Assembly (NCBI GenBank): GCA_022497155.1
Contig: MU385751.1
Span: 372,001-436,000 of the forward strand
Direction: 5' to 3'
Origin: Whalleya microplaca
Taxonomy: Eukaryota > Ascomycota > Sordariomycetes > Xylariales > Xylariaceae
DNA: 64,000 nucleotides
A program made the position numbers and the translations under genes. Below are positions 3,005-57,338 of this stretch, in pieces (the stretch's first letter is position 1; each line of letters starts with the position of its first letter). Under the pieces are notes generated by a model. That model saw nothing but the letters and a program-made list of their open reading frames with translations. It had not been told where the DNA came from and ran no database searches.

Positions 3005-4739
3005 TCACTCCCTAACTCGAAACCTCAAGTCCAACCTGCCGGGCGCGGCAGTGAACTGATCTCTCAAATCACCGAATAACCTCTCACCCCTATCATTGCC
3101 CCAAAATCCGACCTCGAACTTTTTGATTAACAGAGCGATGACAAATCGCATCTCACTCATCGCAAGGGACTTGCCAACGCAGTTGAAGCGGCCCTGAGAG
3201 AAGGGCGCAAACCCTCGTGCATCCTTGACCATTTCGGGTCGCGTTGTCCACCGCTCAGGAATGAACTGGTCAGCACTTTCGTAAGAGGACTCGAGGCGGG
3301 CGAGAGAGTACCGGGGTGCAACAAGCGTTACATTTCCTGGGATATATGTATCATTGATCCTCATACCCGACGGCGGGGTTTGGCGATAGCCACCCGTAGG
3401 CACAGGTGGGTGCAGGCGCAAGGTTTCGTTGATGATGGCGGTGAGGTGAGTGCAGCGCTGAAGCTGGGCGCGGTCATAGATGTCTATGTCTCCCAGTTCC
3501 GATACCAGCTTATCTTGATGCGATGGATTGCGAGCAAGCTCGTAGAAGGCAAAAACAAGGGTTGGGGCGATAGTGTCGCTATTAGTCAGGGTTAGGGGGG
3601 GAGTGTGTAGTACAACAGAGCTTTGGAGAGATCTAACCTCCCGGCGATGATAATAGTAACAGCGTCGCCGTTCAACCAATCGCGATCGGCTTCCAGAGAG
3701 CCTTTCTTCAATGATGCGTCGATGAGCCAGTGTGACACATCGGGCTTCTCGACTTTCCTCTGTGGCCTGATTAGCGAGGGGAAGGGCGAGGACTGGAGTT
3801 AGTCACCTGTATGCGTTCGCCCATGCGGTCCCTACACCACTTCATCATAGAAAGCCAGTCCCGAACAATAATCATCCAGGGAGTGATATAGAATGCAATC
3901 TGAGCGGTCCAGGGCACTGGGCTAAATGGCCCTAGCAAGCTCATAGCCTTCCTCAACAGTTGCACCGCGAAGTGCCACTTCTCATCTTGCAGCATTCCGA
4001 AGGAACGTGCAAATGCAAACTCACCCATAACATCAAATGTGAACCAGTAGAACCAGTCTGAAACATTGACAGGGACCGCATCATGAGCAAGCTCTTCGAG
4101 TCGCGCTGCAAGCGTCTCCGCGTATTCGACGACGCGTTCGTCGTAGACGTCGAGCGCCTTCTTGCTAAAGCCCCGGTCCCAGATACGCCGTCGGGCATCG
4201 TGATCCTTAATGCTCCGCGTCGTATTCACTGCGATTTCGGGGAGCAAAAAATCGTACCACACAGCTTTGGTACAAGGTTTGCGAGGCCCGTCGATGGCCA
4301 GTGGGACAGCAGCGTCAATGATGGTCAACTCCTCCGGCCCGGTCCGGATAACGGGCCCGTACTGCTTGCGCAGCTCTTCGAGGACGAGATAGTTCTTCCC
4401 TGTGCGACATTGCCACACGTGCCAAAATTTAGTGAGTCCAGCTGCCCAAGGGCCGGAGAAATGGCGCAGGCGATGGAAGTATTTCCGGTATATGAGGATG
4501 CTAGTGAATAATCCAGCTGCATACGAGCTTACCACAAGTCCCGTCGTCCTCAGACTGCTGTGGACGTCTAACCCAAGGCAACATTCGGCTAAGGAGAACG
4601 TGAATGCAAGAAAAGAGTAAACCTTGACTAGTGTGGGTGCCTGCATATGCCATTCTCCTCGGATGAAGATGGCATGGTGGGATACAACTCCCAGAATGGC
4701 AGCCCCTAGACAAAGATGGCTTCGTGCTGTGAACGACAT
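3005..4739 (-). CDS. Cytochrome P450 monooxygenase
   Basis: A haem-thiolate monooxygenase, probably anchored in the ER membrane and oxidising a product of the neighbouring terpenoid enzyme. Exons are 4739-3807, 3759-3638 and 3578-3005 (introns of 47 and 59 nt), giving 542 residues, a normal length. The N-terminus carries several hydrophobic segments instead of one, as in the tryprostatin B 6-hydroxylase-like fungal P450s. The I-helix reads AGSDTIAPTL across the second splice junction, the K-helix has ETLRLHPP, then PERW, then the haem loop FSQGRFNCVG with Cys at about residue 485. The ATG at 4739 was chosen because the protein then begins just before the membrane segments; a longer open frame reaches 5018. 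It is divergent from the UbiA-family gene. The substrate cannot be read from sequence. All core motifs are intact. Confidence 0.9.
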
Positions 4740-5189
4740 GCTACCAGATGATACTAGGATAAGTCTTCGGAATGTATCAGTAGAGTTCAAAGGCGGTGGG
4801 AGAATAGGTATTGTAAGAAGTGCTATAAATGAAAGCAGGTGTAGGAGAACGAGGCATATCCGGCGAGTTGATATGAAACCTCCCGAGCAACGAACTATCA
4901 TCTCTTGATCTTGCCACAGAGTAACGCATTCCGTAGGATTACCTGTTTCTAGCCAAGCCCCAACACGTAATCGGTAGGAATACGTATCTGAAATGGATAA
5001 CGCTGAAAGATACCACATACTAAACAGTCGAAATAATGCATGTATGGGTGTAGATCACGTATATATGGGATATATTGCGCAGGAGTACAAAAGAGGTGGC
5101 AGTCAGTCACGAGGAAGCCTACGAGACAGGTCTACCAAAGGTTTACTCCGATTCAACCATACCAAGATAACCACACACACTCGAGAAAC
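4740..5189. promoter_or_regulatory. Divergent promoter, P450 / UbiA-family gene
   Basis: These 450 bases separate the start codons of two oppositely transcribed cluster genes, so both must use it as promoter and 5' leader. This arrangement suggests co-regulation. I could not identify a specific operator with confidence. Confidence 0.5.
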
Positions 5190-6208
5190 ATGCGTCCTGC
5201 ACCTATCAACTCAGTAAGTTGGCACTCGTACGATGCTGCCGCAAGAAAGCTCACCCTTACCTGGCTAAGGTCTTGCGTCGTATCCAAAGTAGCACGTGCC
5301 TTTCCCATGCCTACTCGATATGGCTGTTTACGTTTAGCGACCTCAAGACGATCGTGGTCCCCCAGACCATATTTGGTATTCTCAATGCTCTGGCGCTTTC
5401 ACTGGACCAGCAAGGGCCTCTTAAATGGCTCAAGATACTACTTCGACTCCCCGCGGTGGCCTTCGTTGTTTGGATCAACCTGCTCCCCTTCGCCATTGAC
5501 AATCAGCGACAGCCAAAGGCTATCCTCGAAGACAAGCACAACAAGCCATGGAGGACGATGCCCTCTGGCCGAATGTCGGAGACACAGGCCAAAACTCTGA
5601 TGCTCGTTCTTTACCCGGTGGCGTTCTGTGCTAGCTTGTGGCTTGGAGGCGTCAGGCAGTGTCTTACCCTCATGGTGCTCGGATATGGATATAACGACCT
5701 CAACTTGGCCGACTGGAGCTGGGTCAGTCGAAACGCGATTAACGCGCTCGGTTTTTGCTGTTTTGCCTCGGGAGCCCTAGAAGTAGCACTCAATGCGCCA
5801 CTATCTAGAGAGCACCGTATCATGCTTGAGTGGCTCGGTATCATCGCCGCCGTGGTATTTACAACAGTACAAACACAGGACATGGCCGACCAGGTAGGTG
5901 ATCGCATGCGGGGACGAAGATCGCTGCCCCTATCAGTAGGCGACGGCATGGCACGCTGGTTAACTGCAACGCCCATGATGATATGGTCGGTGGTCTGCCC
6001 CCTCTATTGGGGGGTTAGCATTGGTCTGCATACGCTGGTCGGAGCCCTTGGGCTAGGGATTGCATGCAGGACGGTCGCGTTTCGTAGTGTCGAGGCTGAT
6101 AAGCGAACATTTCGGCTTTGGAACGCGTGGATGGCATGCCTCTACGCGCTTCCGTTGCTAGCCAGCATGGAGTTACATCGACAGCCCTTTGCAAGCATGG
6201 AGTCTTAG
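5190..6208 (+). CDS. UbiA-family membrane prenyltransferase / terpene cyclase
   Basis: An integral membrane enzyme of the UbiA superfamily, 320 residues, mostly hydrophobic helices. Members either move a prenyl group to an acceptor or, like Fma-TC of fumagillin biosynthesis, cyclise farnesyl diphosphate. Exon 1 is only 5190-5213 (MRPAPINS); a 56-nt intron ends at 5269 and exon 2 runs 5270-6208. The small exon is inferred because the long frame has no early ATG of its own. The first metal/diphosphate motif is NQRQP (residues 86-90) followed by ED (95-96) and NKPWR, so an Asp of the classical NDxxDxxxD is missing. The second motif, DMADQVGD (Asp212, Asp215, Asp219) then GRRSLP, is canonical. 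Its neighbours (P450, hydrolase, methyltransferase) support a role as the scaffold-forming step. Whether it cyclises or transfers a prenyl group is undecided. Confidence 0.85.
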
Positions 6209-12218: not shown

Positions 12219-13718
12219 TCAGGCAGCTGTGGCCAGAGGTTCAGGCTGAACACCGACCCGCTCCTTGCTGAGAATATCAAGCATGAACTGGGACGGGCGG
12301 TTGTCCTTGTAAACAGCCTGGCAGGACTTGAATGCCGCGACATCCTCGATGTACTTGTCAAATAGATAAGCACTGTCCATCGGGCCGCCTCGGGCCTCGG
12401 GATGGAACTGAGTCGAGAAGATCGGGCGGGATGTATGCCGCATACCTAGTACCACGTCAGCTAACTTTAATCACACTACACATGAGTATGTGAAAACCCA
12501 CCTTCGTTACTGCCATCGTTAAGGTTGATGAAGTACTCCTTCCATTCATTTGACAATGTAGTAGCGTCAACAGCGTAGCCATGATTCTGGCTAGTAATAT
12601 GGCACTGCCCAGTGGTCATATCCAATGCGGGAATGTTATGGGCACGGTTGCCGTATTTCAGCTTGATGGTCTTGGCCCCGGCAGACAGAGCAAGCAGCTG
12701 GTGGCCCAAGCAGATACCCATAATAGGCACCTGGGAGGTCTCCATCAAGACCCTGAGGTTATGTACAGTATCCTGGCAATGAGTGGGGTCGCCAGGGCCA
12801 TTAGAGATGAAAACACCGTCATAATTGTCGGCCACCTTCTGAATCTTGAAGTCGTACGGGAACACCGTCACGCTGGCGCCTCGGCTCACCAAGCTGCGAA
12901 GGATGTTCTCCTTGACACCGCAGTCGATCAATGCGATGTGATACTTGGGGTCATGAGCCTCCACCACGAAGGGAGCCTTCGTGCTGACCCGCTTGACGAG
13001 ATTGATCTGGCCCGGGTCAAGGAAACTTTCGTCCTCGTCTGCATCGTACTCGTCGCCAACCGAGATCCTAGCCAGAGACGAACCTTGCTCACGCAGGTAG
13101 GTCACAATAGCGCGAGTATCAACACCCGAGATCGCGGGAATGCCTTCCCGCGCGCACCACTCACTCAGACTCTCCACAGCAGTCCAGTGGCTATACCGTT
13201 CGGCAACGTCGGCCACAACAATTCCAGCGCACTGAATATGAGGCGATTCGAAATGTCGCAATAGATTGAATTCGTCACGATGAGAGGAAGGTACGCCGTA
13301 GTTTCCAATCAGCGGTTGGGTAAAGACTAAAATCTGGCCTCGGTACGAGGGGTCGGTCATCGACTCGGGATATCCAACAAGGGACGTCGTGAAGACAGCT
13401 TCGCCGGAGATGTTCGAGTTCGCGCCAAAGGCCGTTCCGTGGAAGACCGGACCATCCTGAACCTAGGTCAGTACAGAAGCAGTCGAGAGGGTTGCGCCAT
13501 TGCTATAAGCATACCCGGAGGGTTAGAGTAGCCTCGATGCCGGAGACAGGAGCCGTGGGACGGTATAGGGATTTGGGCATCTGCCTGCCCTGACTACCTG
13601 GGATAAGCCCATTCTTGGAGAGGCTGGCGGTCGTTGAGAGGAATCGGGCGTTGGGGGGGAGCCCGTGAGCAGCAAAAGCCGCGGGCCTCGCGGCCTTGAA
13701 GGCCAATCGGGAGAACAT
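12219..13718 (-). CDS. cpa1: Carbamoyl-phosphate synthase, arginine-specific, small (glutaminase) subunit
   Basis: The glutamine amidotransferase subunit that supplies ammonia to the large subunit for arginine synthesis, acting in mitochondria in filamentous fungi. Exons are 13718-13515, 13462-12502 and 12445-12219, giving 463 residues. The N-terminus ([17 protein letters not shown]) is basic and free of acidic residues, as expected of a mitochondrial presequence. The family start [13 protein letters not shown] follows the first junction. The class I amidotransferase core has NGPGDP, the nucleophile Cys319 in GICLGHQ, and HPE at 403-405 in [12 protein letters not shown], completing the catalytic residues. 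The start codon at 13718 has G at -3. It lies 59 nt past the stop of the attenuator-peptide uORF, which makes this the arginine-regulated isoform (N. crassa arg-2, yeast CPA1) and not part of a pyrimidine multienzyme. The assignment is firm. Confidence 0.96.
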
Positions 13719-13777: not shown

Positions 13778-14126
13778 CTAAGCGGAGAGAGCCCGCCACA
13801 AGTGGTCTGGATTATGTTAGTGCCTGTTGGCGGTGAGTCAGTTCGTATAGAGAGAGTAAGACGGACCAGAGATATAATCCTGCAGAGATAAACTGTTAGC
13901 AAATGCCATGACTAAATACCAAGTTCCAGAAAAAGTAAGAATTCCCATAATTGAGGCAGTGGTTGAGGCCAATGGCGAGGGACAAGCACTCAGACAGAGA
14001 GAGTGGAACATTCAAGAGGAATGAGATCATTGTGCCAAGCAACCAGGAACGCAATGGGACGGTTCAATCATATGCAAGTAAGATGCAACATACCTGTGAT
14101 GTGAAGGCTGACGAGCGCCCGTTCAT
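13778..14126 (-). CDS. Arginine attenuator peptide (AAP) uORF in three exons
   Basis: A 24-codon upstream open reading frame of the cpa1 mRNA. In Neurospora and yeast this peptide stalls its own ribosome when arginine is abundant and so blocks translation of the main frame. The exons are 14126-14094 (MNGRSSAFTSQ), a 13-nt microexon 13879-13867 (DYIS plus one base) and 13806-13778 (DHLWRALSA, stop). The introns are 214 and 60 nt; the second starts GTCCGT and carries CACTAAC before CCAG. The conserved features of the known peptide, MNGR, FTSQDY with the essential Asp12, and SDHLWRAL, are all restored only by this splicing. The ATG has C at -3, a weak context that would allow leaky scanning to the main start. 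The only uncertainty is whether every transcript uses both introns. Confidence 0.93.
13834..13840. promoter_or_regulatory. Possible Gcn4/CPC1 site TGAGTCA in a leader intron
   Basis: TGAGTCA fits the general amino-acid control consensus TGA(C/G)TCA exactly. It lies inside the second leader intron of cpa1, a gene known to be under this control in other fungi. A 7-base match can arise by chance, and I saw no equally good copy in the nearby upstream region, only TGAATCA at 14643-14649. Confidence 0.3.
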
Positions 14127-15748
14127 AAGGGCAACTGTATTAGTTTCAACCAGAATAGGTAAAGAGAAATGAAGCCGAGTCTGGATGAGAGAGTCGGGGA
14201 GTGTGGAAGAGATCTGGCGGGTGAGCTGCTAAGATATAAAAAGGTGTGTGACTGTTGTTGAGTTGGAGGAAGGGAAGAAAAAAAAAAAAAAAATAGTCAA
14301 TTTTAGTGGGGGAAAATCGCATTCAATTCGCAGGCATCCGTACGTAGCTTATTTACTGCCCGCAGTCTGCTGCTACCTATCATCGGAACCCTGGCAGCCC
14401 TAGCAGCCTGGCTGCCTGGGAAAATTCTCAAGCTAAGCGGTGTGCCCCGCCAGACTGCCAGAGTGGTCAAAGGCTGTGCCCCAATCACAGTCGACCCATT
14501 TCTAGCAATTAGCAGGTTCCGAAAGCGGCTCAGCATGCGGAAAACGGTTTAGGAAATGCAAAGCATGCCGAATTGACAGACACCCGCCATTCATGGATCA
14601 TGTACCACCTGCATACCCCATTGAATATTCGTTCTTTAACTTTGAATCACTGATTATATAGATTGTTCACCTATGAAGGCTTTATGAAGCGTTTACTGTT
14701 GAGCGAATAGCTGCATGAGACCATATGTGGAAATCTCATTTACCTAAGGCTGAGCAAGGCCTGAAGAGCATACCTTTCCCATGAGGAAATCCTTCTAAAA
14801 CTGTAGATCTTTTTAACCTAGGGCTTACCTCATACCTTAGGCGCTTAATCCTTCAGCAGTCTGCTATTATGAATCTGCGTTCCAGGTAGTATTGACTTAC
14901 CATTCTCTCATTAGGCAAGACTATGGTACCATATCTTGACACTTTTTATAAGAGCTATCCCATTAATATGTGTCATCGAGCAGCACCTCGTACCGACTCA
15001 CATCCCCCCTAGCCTAACACCAAATCCTTCCTTCAAGGCGAACCTGTAGTATAATGAAACGCGTCGATGTTGCGGTGAGATACTTGCAGCTGAGATGAGA
15101 ATATAGCGGCAGTTGATGTACAATGCCTGCTGGGATTGCTGATCGGCGGACGACCTAAGTCTCCTTGACACTCATCAATGGTGTTGAATTGAGGGTCAAG
15201 GACTGGTACAGAACACGGCGTATTACTAGTAGCATTGTGTATATATAAAAGGCCGTCTGCCAATCTAGAATAGCCGAACCTTAAGTCAATCAAGTCTCAT
15301 TAACCCTGTATGTCAACAAATGGGATACTCTTCGCTATTTAGACTACCAATGAAAGGATACCTAGGTAGAGAAGTAACAGCTAGGTAGTTGTAGACTAGT
15401 AAGGTGTGTACATGTCTATGCACTACGCTTGACTGTATATTCAATGCATTGCTCCGTTTTTGCTACTTTCGTTTTACAGATGGATTCATCTATTCCGTAT
15501 GAACAGTTTGTCTACCTCCTTCTCTACAATACCCCAGATAGAGTCATAGCTGTGTCTTAACCACTTCCAATATCGTACCCCATGCTAGTTCATAATACAC
15601 CTAGCACGTATATCTCACGTAGTCAAACAACAATGGCCAGGTATAGAGTCCCCAAAGTCGTCTCGGCCTACTCAGTGACGGCCCAGCACCTGATAGCTAT
15701 TTTTCCAAGCCATTCTCGTTGATTCAGCGTACACCGAGTATTCATGCT
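14127..15748. other. Intergenic: cpa1 promoter side and ETF-beta 3' side
   Basis: The left part is the promoter and leader of cpa1, including a 16-A run at 14278-14293. The remainder holds no gene I can support; a short frame at 15033-15293 has no family resemblance. The right edge is the 3' region of the ETF beta gene. Confidence 0.55.
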
Positions 15749-52912: not shown

Positions 52913-55900
52913 TCAGTAAAACCCCATAGACCCCCTCCCCACCCCCGGGTTCACAACAAGCGCCTCGACATTCCGACGGACCTCCCTAAGATTCCGCTGC
53001 AGATCGCCGGGGTGCGCGCCCCCCTCATTACCACCCCTCGCAATCAGATTCAGGTTCGCGGTCACCCAGGCATCGCACTCAGCGACGAGCTCGCCGACCC
53101 AGGGCTCAAGACGCGCGGCCTCGCCCCCAGGCCTCCCGCCGTGGCGGGAGAGGTCGCGCACCCATTGCGCGACCGCGAACGCGATCCACTGCGCCACGCG
53201 CGCGCGTCCGCCGCCGCGGAACGGCACCTCCTGCGCCTCGAAGGCCGCCTCCAGCACCCGCACCACCAGGTCGTGGCTGACGCCCAGGCTCAGGAACGCC
53301 GCCACCGGCCAGTTGGCGTCGGCGCCGATGCGCCCGTCCTGCCCGTTCTCCAGCGCGTACCGCCCCACCTCCGGCAGCAGCGTCGGCACGGGGAAGATGA
53401 ACGAGTCGTTGCTCGCCCGGTGGCAGATGTCCTCGATCTGCGTCACCAGCTTCTCGTACGGCTGCGGCGGCGACTCGCCCACTTGCGCCCCGCGGCTGCG
53501 GCGTTCGGCGTTGAAGGCGGTCCACTGCTCTGCGATCTCGTCGTGGGTTTGCTGGATGAGGTTGCTCCATGTCTGAGAAATGGTGGTGGAGTTTCGGAAG
53601 TCGGCGACGTGGTAGATGATGAGGCAGAGATCGTAGTAGCCAGCCTGATCAGCGTAGTTGTTGAAAAGCTAGGTAGACTCGTGTCATTAATTGTGTCTTA
53701 CGACATCATAAATCAGGGAGAAGGAGGCCGGGAGAGAAATTGGTTGTAGCTACTCACTTCAGACAGAGCTTGGATCTTGCCATCCAAGGCGCTCTCAATC
53801 TCGGGTTGACGCTCTTCGGGGATCCGGGGATCCGCCTTCAGTCTTTCCAGGAGGTCATCTTGTATATGCGCGACTTCCAAGAGTTCGGTGACCTCGTGAT
53901 TGAGGAGCTGCAGTTCTTGCCGGCTAACACCAGGGGTCATAACACTAGCGTTGGTCTTTGCTTTACTGAGCAGCGTAAGGCGATCTTTGATGGAGATGGG
54001 GAAGTCGGATTGCGCCAGGCTGGCCTGCACTTTGGCTGCGTCGAAGTATTGATGGCGCATCGTATAGAACCTGCAGAGGAGGTCCGCATGCACGACGTCT
54101 TGCGACGCCAGCCGGCTGAGGAAGGCCGTGACGTACTGTGAATTGATGCTGAGGAGGCGATCGGTCCACCCTTGCTGTATATACCATTCATATAAATCAA
54201 AATGAAAAACTTCATCTGTTGAGCCGCTGACAACTTCATACGCCTCGGCGCGTTTAGTAGACATTAATGACGGCTTCCCATCAATAAGCGGCTCCTGCTC
54301 TCGACTCAATACAGCATCTAATTCCTGGAGGATGCCATGGATCAAGCCGTAACAAGCTCTGCGCTCATTAAAGGCATTCTCTCTGGGGTCATTCGGAGGC
54401 TTTCCATCATTGATCCATGAGAGCGCGGAATTCCCGCGGTCCCTTTCATGGGCAACTACCAAGCATAGCTGTATGGCTCCCGCATAGTATCGCAGGCCGA
54501 CGTACTGTTCAACTGCAATTTGTAGGTTATTTTGGGTGAGGCTCCCCGCTACCCTCTGGAAAAGCTTCAGACTCTCGTGGAGGAGAGTGCGGGACGTGTT
54601 GGGGTTCAAGGACGGCTCCGACGCTTTCTTGAGCTGCTCCTGGGCCTTGAAAATGACGACGTCGTCAGGGCTGCAGAAGCTGCCGCACTTGCGTCGGAGC
54701 GCATCCGCCACGGTCTCGACATTAGATCCGTTTTCGATATTTCGATTGACGATGGCCTTCACCAAGAGTTTCGCGAGGTCCTTACCGGAAGTCTCCGAGA
54801 AGAGGCGTTCGTAAGTGAGTTCCCTAAACTGCTGTCTTGACTCTTCGCTGAGGCTGAGATAGATATCTGCGACGCGCTCCTCGAAGAGCGTCGTGACAAA
54901 CGATATACCCTCCGTTATGCCCGTCATCAAAAGTTCTACGGCGTGCATAGCCTGATGCTCACCCTGGAAGGCGACCTCCTCCTGCTTGCTTCCGGCTTTC
55001 TTAAGGTCGGCGGCACCGGAAAGACCTTGGATGAAAGCTCGGTTGGCCTCAAGGAAACTTCGCAGACTCTCAATGCTCTCTTGCACTGTCCTAAGCTTCC
55101 CCACATCAATGACACTCTTGACGGTCAATGCGCCATTGGCATCACTAGAGGGGGCGATAACCTTCATCTTCCAGAAAGATCGAACCAGTCGACTGAGATA
55201 TAGAGTTAGAGCGCCATGACGTGACGAAGGCCTCACCATCTCGATTGTCGCTTGTTGTCCATCCTGCTCAGGGAGTGTGGGATTCCCACCGTAGTTGATA
55301 AACACCTGTTTCGCACGGTCTTGAGTTGGTTGGTCGATGGCGCCACGGCCCATGCGGCCATTATCTCCGGGACGGCATGCGACAGCGAGCGCGGCTGTGA
55401 TAGTTTCGACGCGGCCGTAGGCACTCTGGAACTTATTGATTTCCGCCTTGAGACCCTCCTCGCCAGCGACACTCCTAATGACGGAGGCGAAGATGTCGAC
55501 AAGCCTTCTGCGTCGGATGGTGTGGACCCCGGTATTCGTGAGGATGGCGAACTCGCTACCGCCGGGAAGATCAAACTGAACGGCGAGCTCGTTCCCGAAA
55601 CCGGTCGGGTGGTTGGATGCCGCGAATGGCTTCGACACGAGGCCAATATCTTCAGCCCTACTCTCGATATTGATCCAGTTGGCATGTTCATAGAACCGCA
55701 TGTTCTGTGTATGGACGCCGTTCTTTATGCGTCCGCTGTCGGGAGCTGAGACAAACAAGCTGTCGCCTCTGGGTTGATCGGCCTTACTAACAAAATCCAG
55801 GAAGTATCCGGGGGCAAACCGGACCCCACGACGGCTCGTTTCGAGAATTCTAGACTGCACATCGACAGGCTCAACAAGACCACCGAACGGGTCGGACCTG

Positions 55901-57338
55901 TGTCTGCGTTGCTGTCCAGGCGGAGGAAATTTGATGCATTGGAGCTGCATGCTTTGAGGAGCGCGACTCGAAGAATTACCATATATATACGATGAGGCGC
56001 TAGTAGCGTTCATGAATAATCGGCATCCCGTGTTCGTCAAGGCCATGAGATGGACCTTTGTATCCTCGGCGGCAGAGATGGGGCTGATGGACACAATATG
56101 CATGCGTTCATGCAGCAAAGGTGAAGTGACACTCATGGCGTGCGCGATATCGCGTAGGAAGTCATCCCTGGTCTTCTCAATGCACTTGGTAAGCTTCTTA
56201 GGGGCCTCGATATGATAAGTGCGCACGGTGGAGGTGGTGGAGAGGGCGTAGAGCAGGTTTCTGCTATCATCTATGACGAGATCCACGATCTGTTCCCCTG
56301 CCGTTTTGCCCCAAAGCATTTCTTTGGGGGTTGTAACTACGCCCCAGCTGGGATTCGTATGGTTGATCTTGCCCGTCCTGCTCGAAAACCACTTCTCCTC
56401 CTGCTGATAGTACAGCTCATAGATGTCGCTATCAGTCTGGCCGGAGAAGAATATGCGCCCATCGGCGGAACCGACGATGACATGCGCCTCGGTGCCTCGC
56501 AAAGGCAGCGACATCCTCGTGCCGTAAAGTTCAACGGTCTGGCCGCCACTCTGGGCGGTGTGGGCGGCGACTCCTAGGAGAAATATTTCGGAGGTAGTGG
56601 CGACGACCAAGATGTGAGTGATAATAGGGTTGAAGACACCGGGCTTCGGGGCGACTAGCTTGACAGCGGTGATACTATGTTGGCTGTCTTCGTAGCCGAT
56701 CAGCTCGGGGTTCGGGTGTGTGTAATCCCAGAGGTAGAGACAGTTGTCCATGGTGACCCAGGCATGGTTCAGCTCGGCGAACAACCCCATCATGGTAGAG
56801 ACTTCGGCCCTGTTATATTGGGCCAAAACGTTCTGCGGGATGGGATACGTCGGCCCCTTTTGGAAAGGCGCCCAGGCGGAATCGGCGCGTGTAAGGTCGT
56901 ATTCGGACGAGCTTTCTAGTTCCAAGGCCAATTAGTACGGAGAGCAAGGGCGCATCGGGGTATCAGGGTATCGGGGTAGGGCAGTGAAGACTCACGTCTG
57001 CAGTAATTGTCAAGCTCGGGATAGTTGTCGTCCTTAGTCAAGGCATTATTAATGTAGCTGGCCGCCTTGGCCAAGGGAGGCAGCGGAGGCTGGGGAGGTA
57101 ATACGGGTTGGGCCTGCAGATCTCGCATGGCCTGGTCGGCGGCGTTCGTAGTAGGAGCATCGAGACCCATGCCCGGCTGGGGAGCGAATCGGGGGGGTTG
57201 ACTGGCGGATGAAGCTGGGGTGTCGGTGAACAGGCGTCGGCGGACAGGATCTTGCTGGGCATTGAAGCGCGATGCGACGGCGGGAGTATGTAGAAAGGCG
57301 CCTGGTAGAGCTTGCGACGGCGTCTGTGGGAAGGCCAT
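52913..57338 (-). CDS. nup170: Nucleoporin Nup170 / Nup155 family
   Basis: A structural nucleoporin of the inner ring of the nuclear pore, 1418 residues, the expected size of the Nup155/Nup157/Nup170 family. Exons are 57338-56996, 56915-53758 and 53668-52913. The N-terminal 100 residues are Pro/Gln-rich and disordered, followed by YINNALTKDDNYPELDNYCR, a conserved family start. The beta-propeller begins near PTYPIPQNVLAQYNRAEV, with LWDYTHPNPELIGYED typical of the family. The C-terminal half is an alpha-solenoid, for example VEQYVGLRYYAGAIQLCL. The third exon is very GC-rich and encodes the last 252 residues, ending MGFY. All three junctions keep frame and restore family sequence (CRQSSSEYDL; ALSELFNNYADQ). 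I am confident of the family; yeast's two paralogues correspond to this one gene. Confidence 0.95.

What the first reader, a model, noticed from the sequence alone, without database searches (positions are those of the whole stretch)
13778..14126. Arginine attenuator peptide encoded over three exons with a 13-nt microexon
The peptide parts MNGRSSAFTSQ, DYIS and DHLWRALSA only appear when 214-nt and 60-nt introns are removed. The known N. crassa and yeast peptides share MNGR, FTSQDY, and SDHLWRAL. A regulatory nascent peptide that depends on correct inclusion of a 13-nt exon is a striking layout: splicing could set the arginine response.
Basis: partly seen in the sequence, partly recalled or inferred. 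Interest (0 to 1): 0.75.

Follow-up and report, generated by a model that had tools for sequence, protein, structure and literature searches.

The report
Intron-split arginine attenuator peptide leader
In front of an arginine-making enzyme gene, a fungus encodes the well-known ribosome-stalling arginine attenuator peptide in three small exons, the middle one only 13 bases long; the peptide is familiar, while its split gene layout is unusual and still needs RNA evidence.

Summary
On the minus strand, exons 14126-14094, 13879-13867 (13 nt) and 13806-13778, with 214-nt and 60-nt GT-AG introns removed, give MNGRSSAFTSQDYISDHLWRALSA*. It is 20 of 24 identical to PDB 2xl1, named arginine attenuator peptide (E 9.6e-11). 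A spliced alignment scores 111 of 130; 28 of 28 shuffled windows reach at most 41. The uORF ends 59 nt before the ATG of the arginine-specific carbamoyl-phosphate synthase small subunit gene (best relatives Xylariales, 88%). So this is an AAP uORF of a Xylariales-type fungus, and arginine-dependent stalling is the expected mechanism. In 6 of 6 other splice outcomes that I translated the SDHLWRAL end is lost, so AAP needs correct splicing. That splicing sets the arginine response is untested. Two facts leave room for it: a rare 5' site (GTCCGT) after the microexon, and two complete 3' ends in intron 2, 17 nt apart, only one of which yields AAP. I could get no related fungal DNA and no RNA data, and the key comparative paper (Hood 2007) is not held. 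Known peptide, unusual layout, modest interest.

The parts
14094..14126 (-). AAP uORF exon 1 (33 nt, codons 1-11, MNGRSSAFTSQ)
   Evidence: matches 2xl1_A
13880..14093 (-). uORF intron 1 (214 nt, GTATGT...CTAAC-16-CAG end)
   Evidence: the 5' hexamer is in excess before CTAAC..CAG in this genome
13867..13879 (-). 13-nt microexon (codons 12-15, DYIS, and first base of D16)
13807..13866 (-). uORF intron 2 (60 nt, GTCCGT...CTAAC-10-CAG end); a second complete 3' end (CTGAC, CAG ending at 13824) would give a 43-nt intron
   Evidence: GTCCGT shows no excess before CTAAC..CAG in the genome
13778..13806 (-). AAP uORF exon 3 (29 nt with TAG; rest of D16, then HLWRALSA)
13515..13718 (-). arginine-specific carbamoyl-phosphate synthase small subunit (arg-2/CPA1) exon 1, ATG at 13718, 59 nt after the uORF stop
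12502..13456 (-). arg-2/CPA1 exon 2 (intron 13514-13457, 58 nt; 3' end placed by the IRDGPVF reading of relatives, LRDGPVF here)
   Evidence: (6 of 8 printed N-termini; the other two are cut before it)
12219..12445 (-). arg-2/CPA1 exon 3 with stop (intron 12501-12446, 56 nt)

Best explanation
This is the arginine attenuator peptide (AAP) uORF of the arg-2/CPA1 gene of a Xylariales-type sordariomycete, split by two spliceosomal introns so that codons 12-15 and the first base of codon 16 sit in a 13-nt microexon. Shown: the sequence anatomy, the 20/24 match to AAP, the downstream gene, and that the six other splice outcomes examined lose AAP. Inferred from the known family: after both introns are removed, mostly constitutively, some scanning ribosomes start at the poorly placed uORF ATG; with high arginine the nascent peptide stalls the ribosome at the stop codon, blocks scanning to the enzyme's start codon 59 nt further on, and promotes nonsense-mediated decay; with low arginine, leaky scanning makes the enzyme. 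Also inferred: the microexon is too short to be recognised as an exon, so short intron 2 is probably removed first by intron definition and long intron 1 second.
For: Exact spliced ORF; E 9.6e-11 to PDB 'arginine attenuator peptide'; 111 against at most 41 in 28 of 28 shuffles. Downstream gene is a CPSase small subunit, PF00988 E 8.1e-45, best relatives 88% and 87% over 100% of the query. The other of 2 PF00988 matches in the genome is followed, in another frame and presumably after an intron, by amidotransferase and large-subunit-like sequence; I read it as the pyrimidine fusion enzyme, so the window holds the arginine-specific copy. No ATG lies between 14322 and 14126, and none between the uORF stop and the enzyme ATG. 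Start contexts GCCCTTATGAA (uORF, C at -3) and AAAGACATGTT (enzyme, G at -3) fit leaky scanning. Literature passages: arginine stalling and lowered initiation at the arg-2 main ORF (PMC5640933; PMC11550727); reporter repression by, and NMD of, the orthologs (PMC7049704).
Against: No RNA, ribosome-profiling or reporter data for this organism. Intron 2's 5' site is a hexamer with no detectable genome-wide excess. Intron 2 has a rival 3' end. Intron 1 is long next to the two enzyme-gene introns of 58 and 56 nt. The transcription start is unknown; ATGs at 14383, 14337 and 14322 would precede the uORF if the mRNA began above them.
Confidence: 0.85

Rival explanations
1. Splicing is itself a control layer: a fraction of transcripts skip the microexon, retain an intron, or use the upstream 3' site at 13824, and so carry an inert uORF instead of AAP; changing this fraction tunes how strongly arginine represses the enzyme.
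For: Rare 5' site GTCCGT after the microexon: GTCCGT..CTAAC..CAG 54 places (this intron among them), 82 with a decoy branch motif, 109 for the reversed pattern; GTATGT..CTAAC..CAG 305, decoy 172, reversed 134. Two complete 3' ends in intron 2; the upstream one gives a 35-aa uORF without SDHLWRAL that ends 43 nt before the enzyme ATG. Precedents in held papers: N. crassa SAM decarboxylase leader splice forms with or without two uORFs (PMC5640933 passages), and a 20-nt glucose-controlled microexon in Trichoderma virens Xlr2 (PMC11121469 passages).
Against: No transcript evidence. Decoy and reversed counts are rough, and a rare 5' site can still be used constitutively. The 43-nt intron would be short. 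Relatives could not be compared. [quoted passage not shown]
Confidence: 0.12
2. A decaying or unused uORF: transcription usually starts below 14126, or splicing usually fails, and the peptide is a relic.
For: The 5' site of intron 2 is rare; a long intron 1 could hold a later transcription start (not tested).
Against: 20 of 24 residues kept; the four differences are at positions 5, 7, 14 (Ile for Leu) and 23. Start and stop intact; a 71% pyrimidine, ATG-free stretch of 171 nt lies just upstream.
Confidence: 0.03
3. Chance assembly of AAP-like codons from unrelated GT-AG combinations.
For: None beyond the freedom to choose splice sites.
Against: Score 111 against at most 41 in 28 of 28 shuffles; lies 59 nt before the expected gene.
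Confidence: 0.001

Closest known systems
Neurospora crassa arg-2 AAP uORF (peptide taken as that of PDB 2xl1; the species is recalled, the entry is named only arginine attenuator peptide)
   Same: 24-codon peptide, 20 of 24 identical; sits before the arginine-specific carbamoyl-phosphate synthase small subunit
   Different: Here the coding sequence is split by 214-nt and 60-nt introns with a 13-nt middle exon. Whether the N. crassa or other AAP coding regions carry introns I could not check: Hood, Spevak and Sachs 2007 is not held.
Saccharomyces cerevisiae CPA1 AAP uORF
   Same: Same gene and control principle, including NMD (PMC7049704 passage)
   Different: Peptide more divergent and uninterrupted (both recalled, not looked up).
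Trichoderma virens Xlr2 microexon switch
   Same: Microexon in a sordariomycete gene whose inclusion decides the product (PMC11121469 abstract and passages)
   Different: 20 nt, in a main coding sequence, with RNA evidence of glucose control; here 13 nt, in a leader uORF, without RNA evidence.
N. crassa SAM decarboxylase leader (SDC motif)
   Same: Leader splicing changes which uORFs an mRNA carries in a metabolic gene (PMC5640933 passages)
   Different: Two splice forms were seen there by RT-PCR; whether they are regulated was left open by the authors; no AAP.

Membership tests
Fungal arginine attenuator peptide uORF | Peptide with the AAP sequence | tested here: met
   20/24 identical, E 9.6e-11 to 2xl1_A, after removing two introns
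Fungal arginine attenuator peptide uORF | Located in the leader of the arginine-specific CPSase small subunit gene | tested here: met
   Stop 59 nt before the ATG; PF00988; 88% relatives
Fungal arginine attenuator peptide uORF | uORF start is the first AUG of the mRNA, in a context that allows leaky scanning | tested here: inconclusive
   No ATG between 14322 and 14126; C at -3; transcription start unknown
[quoted passage not shown]
   Needs translation assays or ribosome profiling
Fungal arginine attenuator peptide uORF | uORF present in the mature mRNA | not testable with these tools
   GT-AG and branch-like motifs present; no RNA data
Regulated microexon | Condition-dependent inclusion shown by RNA | not testable with these tools
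   None available for this organism

The most novel reading that the evidence does not exclude
Alternative splicing of the uORF (microexon skipping, or the two 3' ends of intron 2 fed by separate branch points) makes two classes of mRNA, with AAP and with an inert uORF, so that a splice choice sets the share of transcripts able to sense arginine: a nascent-peptide sensor gated by a microexon.
Probability: 0.1. Interest if true: 0.65.

Novelty: new member of a known kind. Interest (0 to 1): 0.35.

Why it matters
It shows that a textbook ribosome-stalling leader peptide can be hidden from ORF scans by introns, which bears on how AAPs and other conserved uORFs are counted in fungi. If splicing is incomplete or controlled, it would join splicing and nascent-peptide sensing in one short leader that is easy to test by RT-PCR and reporters.

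Tried and rejected
Chance was rejected. A search for fungal relatives' DNA failed: viral contigs with relative P0001 gave 5 pattern matches and 0 confirmed; an AAP codon pattern in viral contigs gave 0; genome contigs gave 85 pattern matches and 2 confirmed loci, both titled as bacterial MAGs. So conservation of the exon layout is untested. Of the 120 relatives of the enzyme that were listed (of 3401), 0 carry an AAP-like motif in the annotated protein. A narrower AAP codon pattern had 0 matches in the own genome, but it assumed TAC for Tyr 13 and an uninterrupted reading, so it could not have found this copy. Rfam: 0 matches at gathering score in the window. Searches gave sequence, ORF lists, 5S genes, locus lists, junction trials and taxonomy only. 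My first model of the enzyme (463 aa) placed the 3' end of its first intron 6 nt too early; relatives read IRDGPVF (6 of the 8 N-termini printed), so the intron is 13514-13457 (checked) and the protein 461 aa by arithmetic; the search used the 463-aa version.

Literature (listings unless said otherwise): 'arginine attenuator peptide' with 'intron' gave 19 papers, with 'splicing' 25, of which 20 were listed, with 'Aspergillus' 7. I read passages of PMC7049704, PMC2075485, PMC11550727, PMC9604717 and PMC5487733; none of the passages shown describes introns inside AAP. Phrases for a uORF with an intron gave 0; peptide strings gave 0; other listings are. Passages of PMC4288187 were read and not used. 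Nine papers asked for by id were not held. Because the central comparative paper was not readable, I make no claim that the layout is unpublished.

Full report
What is there. The minus strand holds ATG at 14126, an 11-codon exon to 14094, a 214-nt intron, a 13-nt exon 13879-13867, a 60-nt intron, and a last exon 13806-13778 ending in TAG. Spliced, this is 75 nt and reads MNGRSSAFTSQDYISDHLWRALSA. A protein search of solved structures, up to E 10, returned one sequence, 2xl1_A, named arginine attenuator peptide, aligned over 24 of 24 residues with 20 identities, E 9.6e-11.

Chance. I searched both strands of the window for any ATG, two GT-AG introns of 45-300 nt and a stop giving 24 residues, scored with BLOSUM62 against the 2xl1 peptide. 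The minus strand's best is this peptide with these junctions, 111 of a possible 130; the plus strand's best is 39. In 28 dinucleotide-preserving shuffles of the window, both strands, the best score was 41; the floor of that search was 30.

Surroundings. [quoted passage not shown] The genome (48.1 Mb, 114 contigs) has 2 matches to PF00988. The other match is followed, in another frame and presumably after an intron, by amidotransferase and large-subunit-like sequence, which I read as the pyrimidine-pathway fusion enzyme. The best relatives of the window's protein are from Xylariaceae sp. FL0255 (88%), Diatrype stigma (87%), Pseudomassariella vexata (88% over 94% of the query) and others at 82-84% with Xylariales-type names, then other Sordariomycetes mostly at about 72-80% (120 best of 3401 listed, from 7999 scored candidates). 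So the organism is most likely a member of Xylariales; the taxonomy of that order is, the placement is inference. The relatives read IRDGPVF (6 of the 8 N-termini printed; the other two are cut before it), which sets the enzyme's first intron at 13514-13457; its second is 12501-12446.

Splice signals. Distances are counted from the branch A to the intron end. Intron 1 begins GTATGT and has CTAAC at 16; intron 2 begins GTCCGT and has CTAAC at 10. In the whole genome the pattern GTATGT-CTAAC-CAG occurs 305 times, 134 times reversed; with a decoy branch motif 172 times, 100 reversed. GTCCGT-CTAAC-CAG occurs 54 times, 109 reversed; with the decoy 82 times, 68 reversed. Overlapping matches were counted more than once, and the decoy itself may differ in background frequency. 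So GTCCGT shows no excess and looks like a rare 5' site here, though this does not show that it is unused. Intron 2 also has CTGAC at 14 from another CAG ending at 13824, a complete second 3' end. Both enzyme-gene introns have CTGAC at 11.

Consequences of mis-splicing. I translated six other outcomes: microexon skipped, intron 2 ended at 13824, both of these together, intron 1 retained, intron 2 retained, both retained. In 6 of 6 the SDHLWRAL end is lost. Two of them (skip, and the 13824 site) give uORFs of 25 and 35 codons that end 43 nt before the enzyme ATG.

How it most likely works. Held papers state that arginine makes ribosomes stall at the arg-2 uORF and lowers initiation at the main ORF (PMC5640933 passage; PMC11550727 passages), and that the AAP uORFs of orthologs repress reporters, and that the yeast and N. 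crassa mRNAs are NMD targets (PMC7049704 passage). The poor uORF start context (C at -3), the better enzyme context (G at -3), and the lack of other ATGs between 14322 and the uORF start and between the uORF stop and the enzyme ATG fit leaky scanning; three ATGs at 14383, 14337 and 14322 matter only if transcription starts above them. The enzyme's first exon junction lies 263 nt after the uORF stop (arithmetic), a position that would favour exon-junction-dependent decay where that operates; this is inference. Removal of short intron 2 before long intron 1 is also inference.

What remains open. Partial precedents are the N. [quoted passage not shown] There is no transcript evidence here. The one TGASTCA site between 12000 and 15800 lies inside intron 2 at 13834 (8 in the window); it recalls the Gcn4/CPC1 site (recalled) and may be chance.

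Verdict. A real, new member of a known kind: an AAP uORF, with an unusual three-exon layout. Whether the layout is already in print I could not determine.

Noticed in passing
13834-13840: The only TGASTCA (Gcn4/CPC1-like, recalled) motif between 12000 and 15800 lies inside uORF intron 2 and overlaps its upstream branch-like CTGAC.
   Followed up: partly
3774-6205: A cytochrome P450 piece (minus) beside a UbiA prenyltransferase (plus), possibly a secondary-metabolite pair.
   Followed up: no
53716-56931: A 1072-aa open frame with both Nup133-type nucleoporin domains in one uninterrupted stretch.
   Followed up: no
P0075, P0095, P0104 and others: Several Claviceps orthologs of the enzyme are named 'Amino-acid acetyltransferase, mitochondrial', and some others 'Multifunctional pyrimidine synthesis protein CAD', apparently misnamed in the source records.
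   Followed up: no
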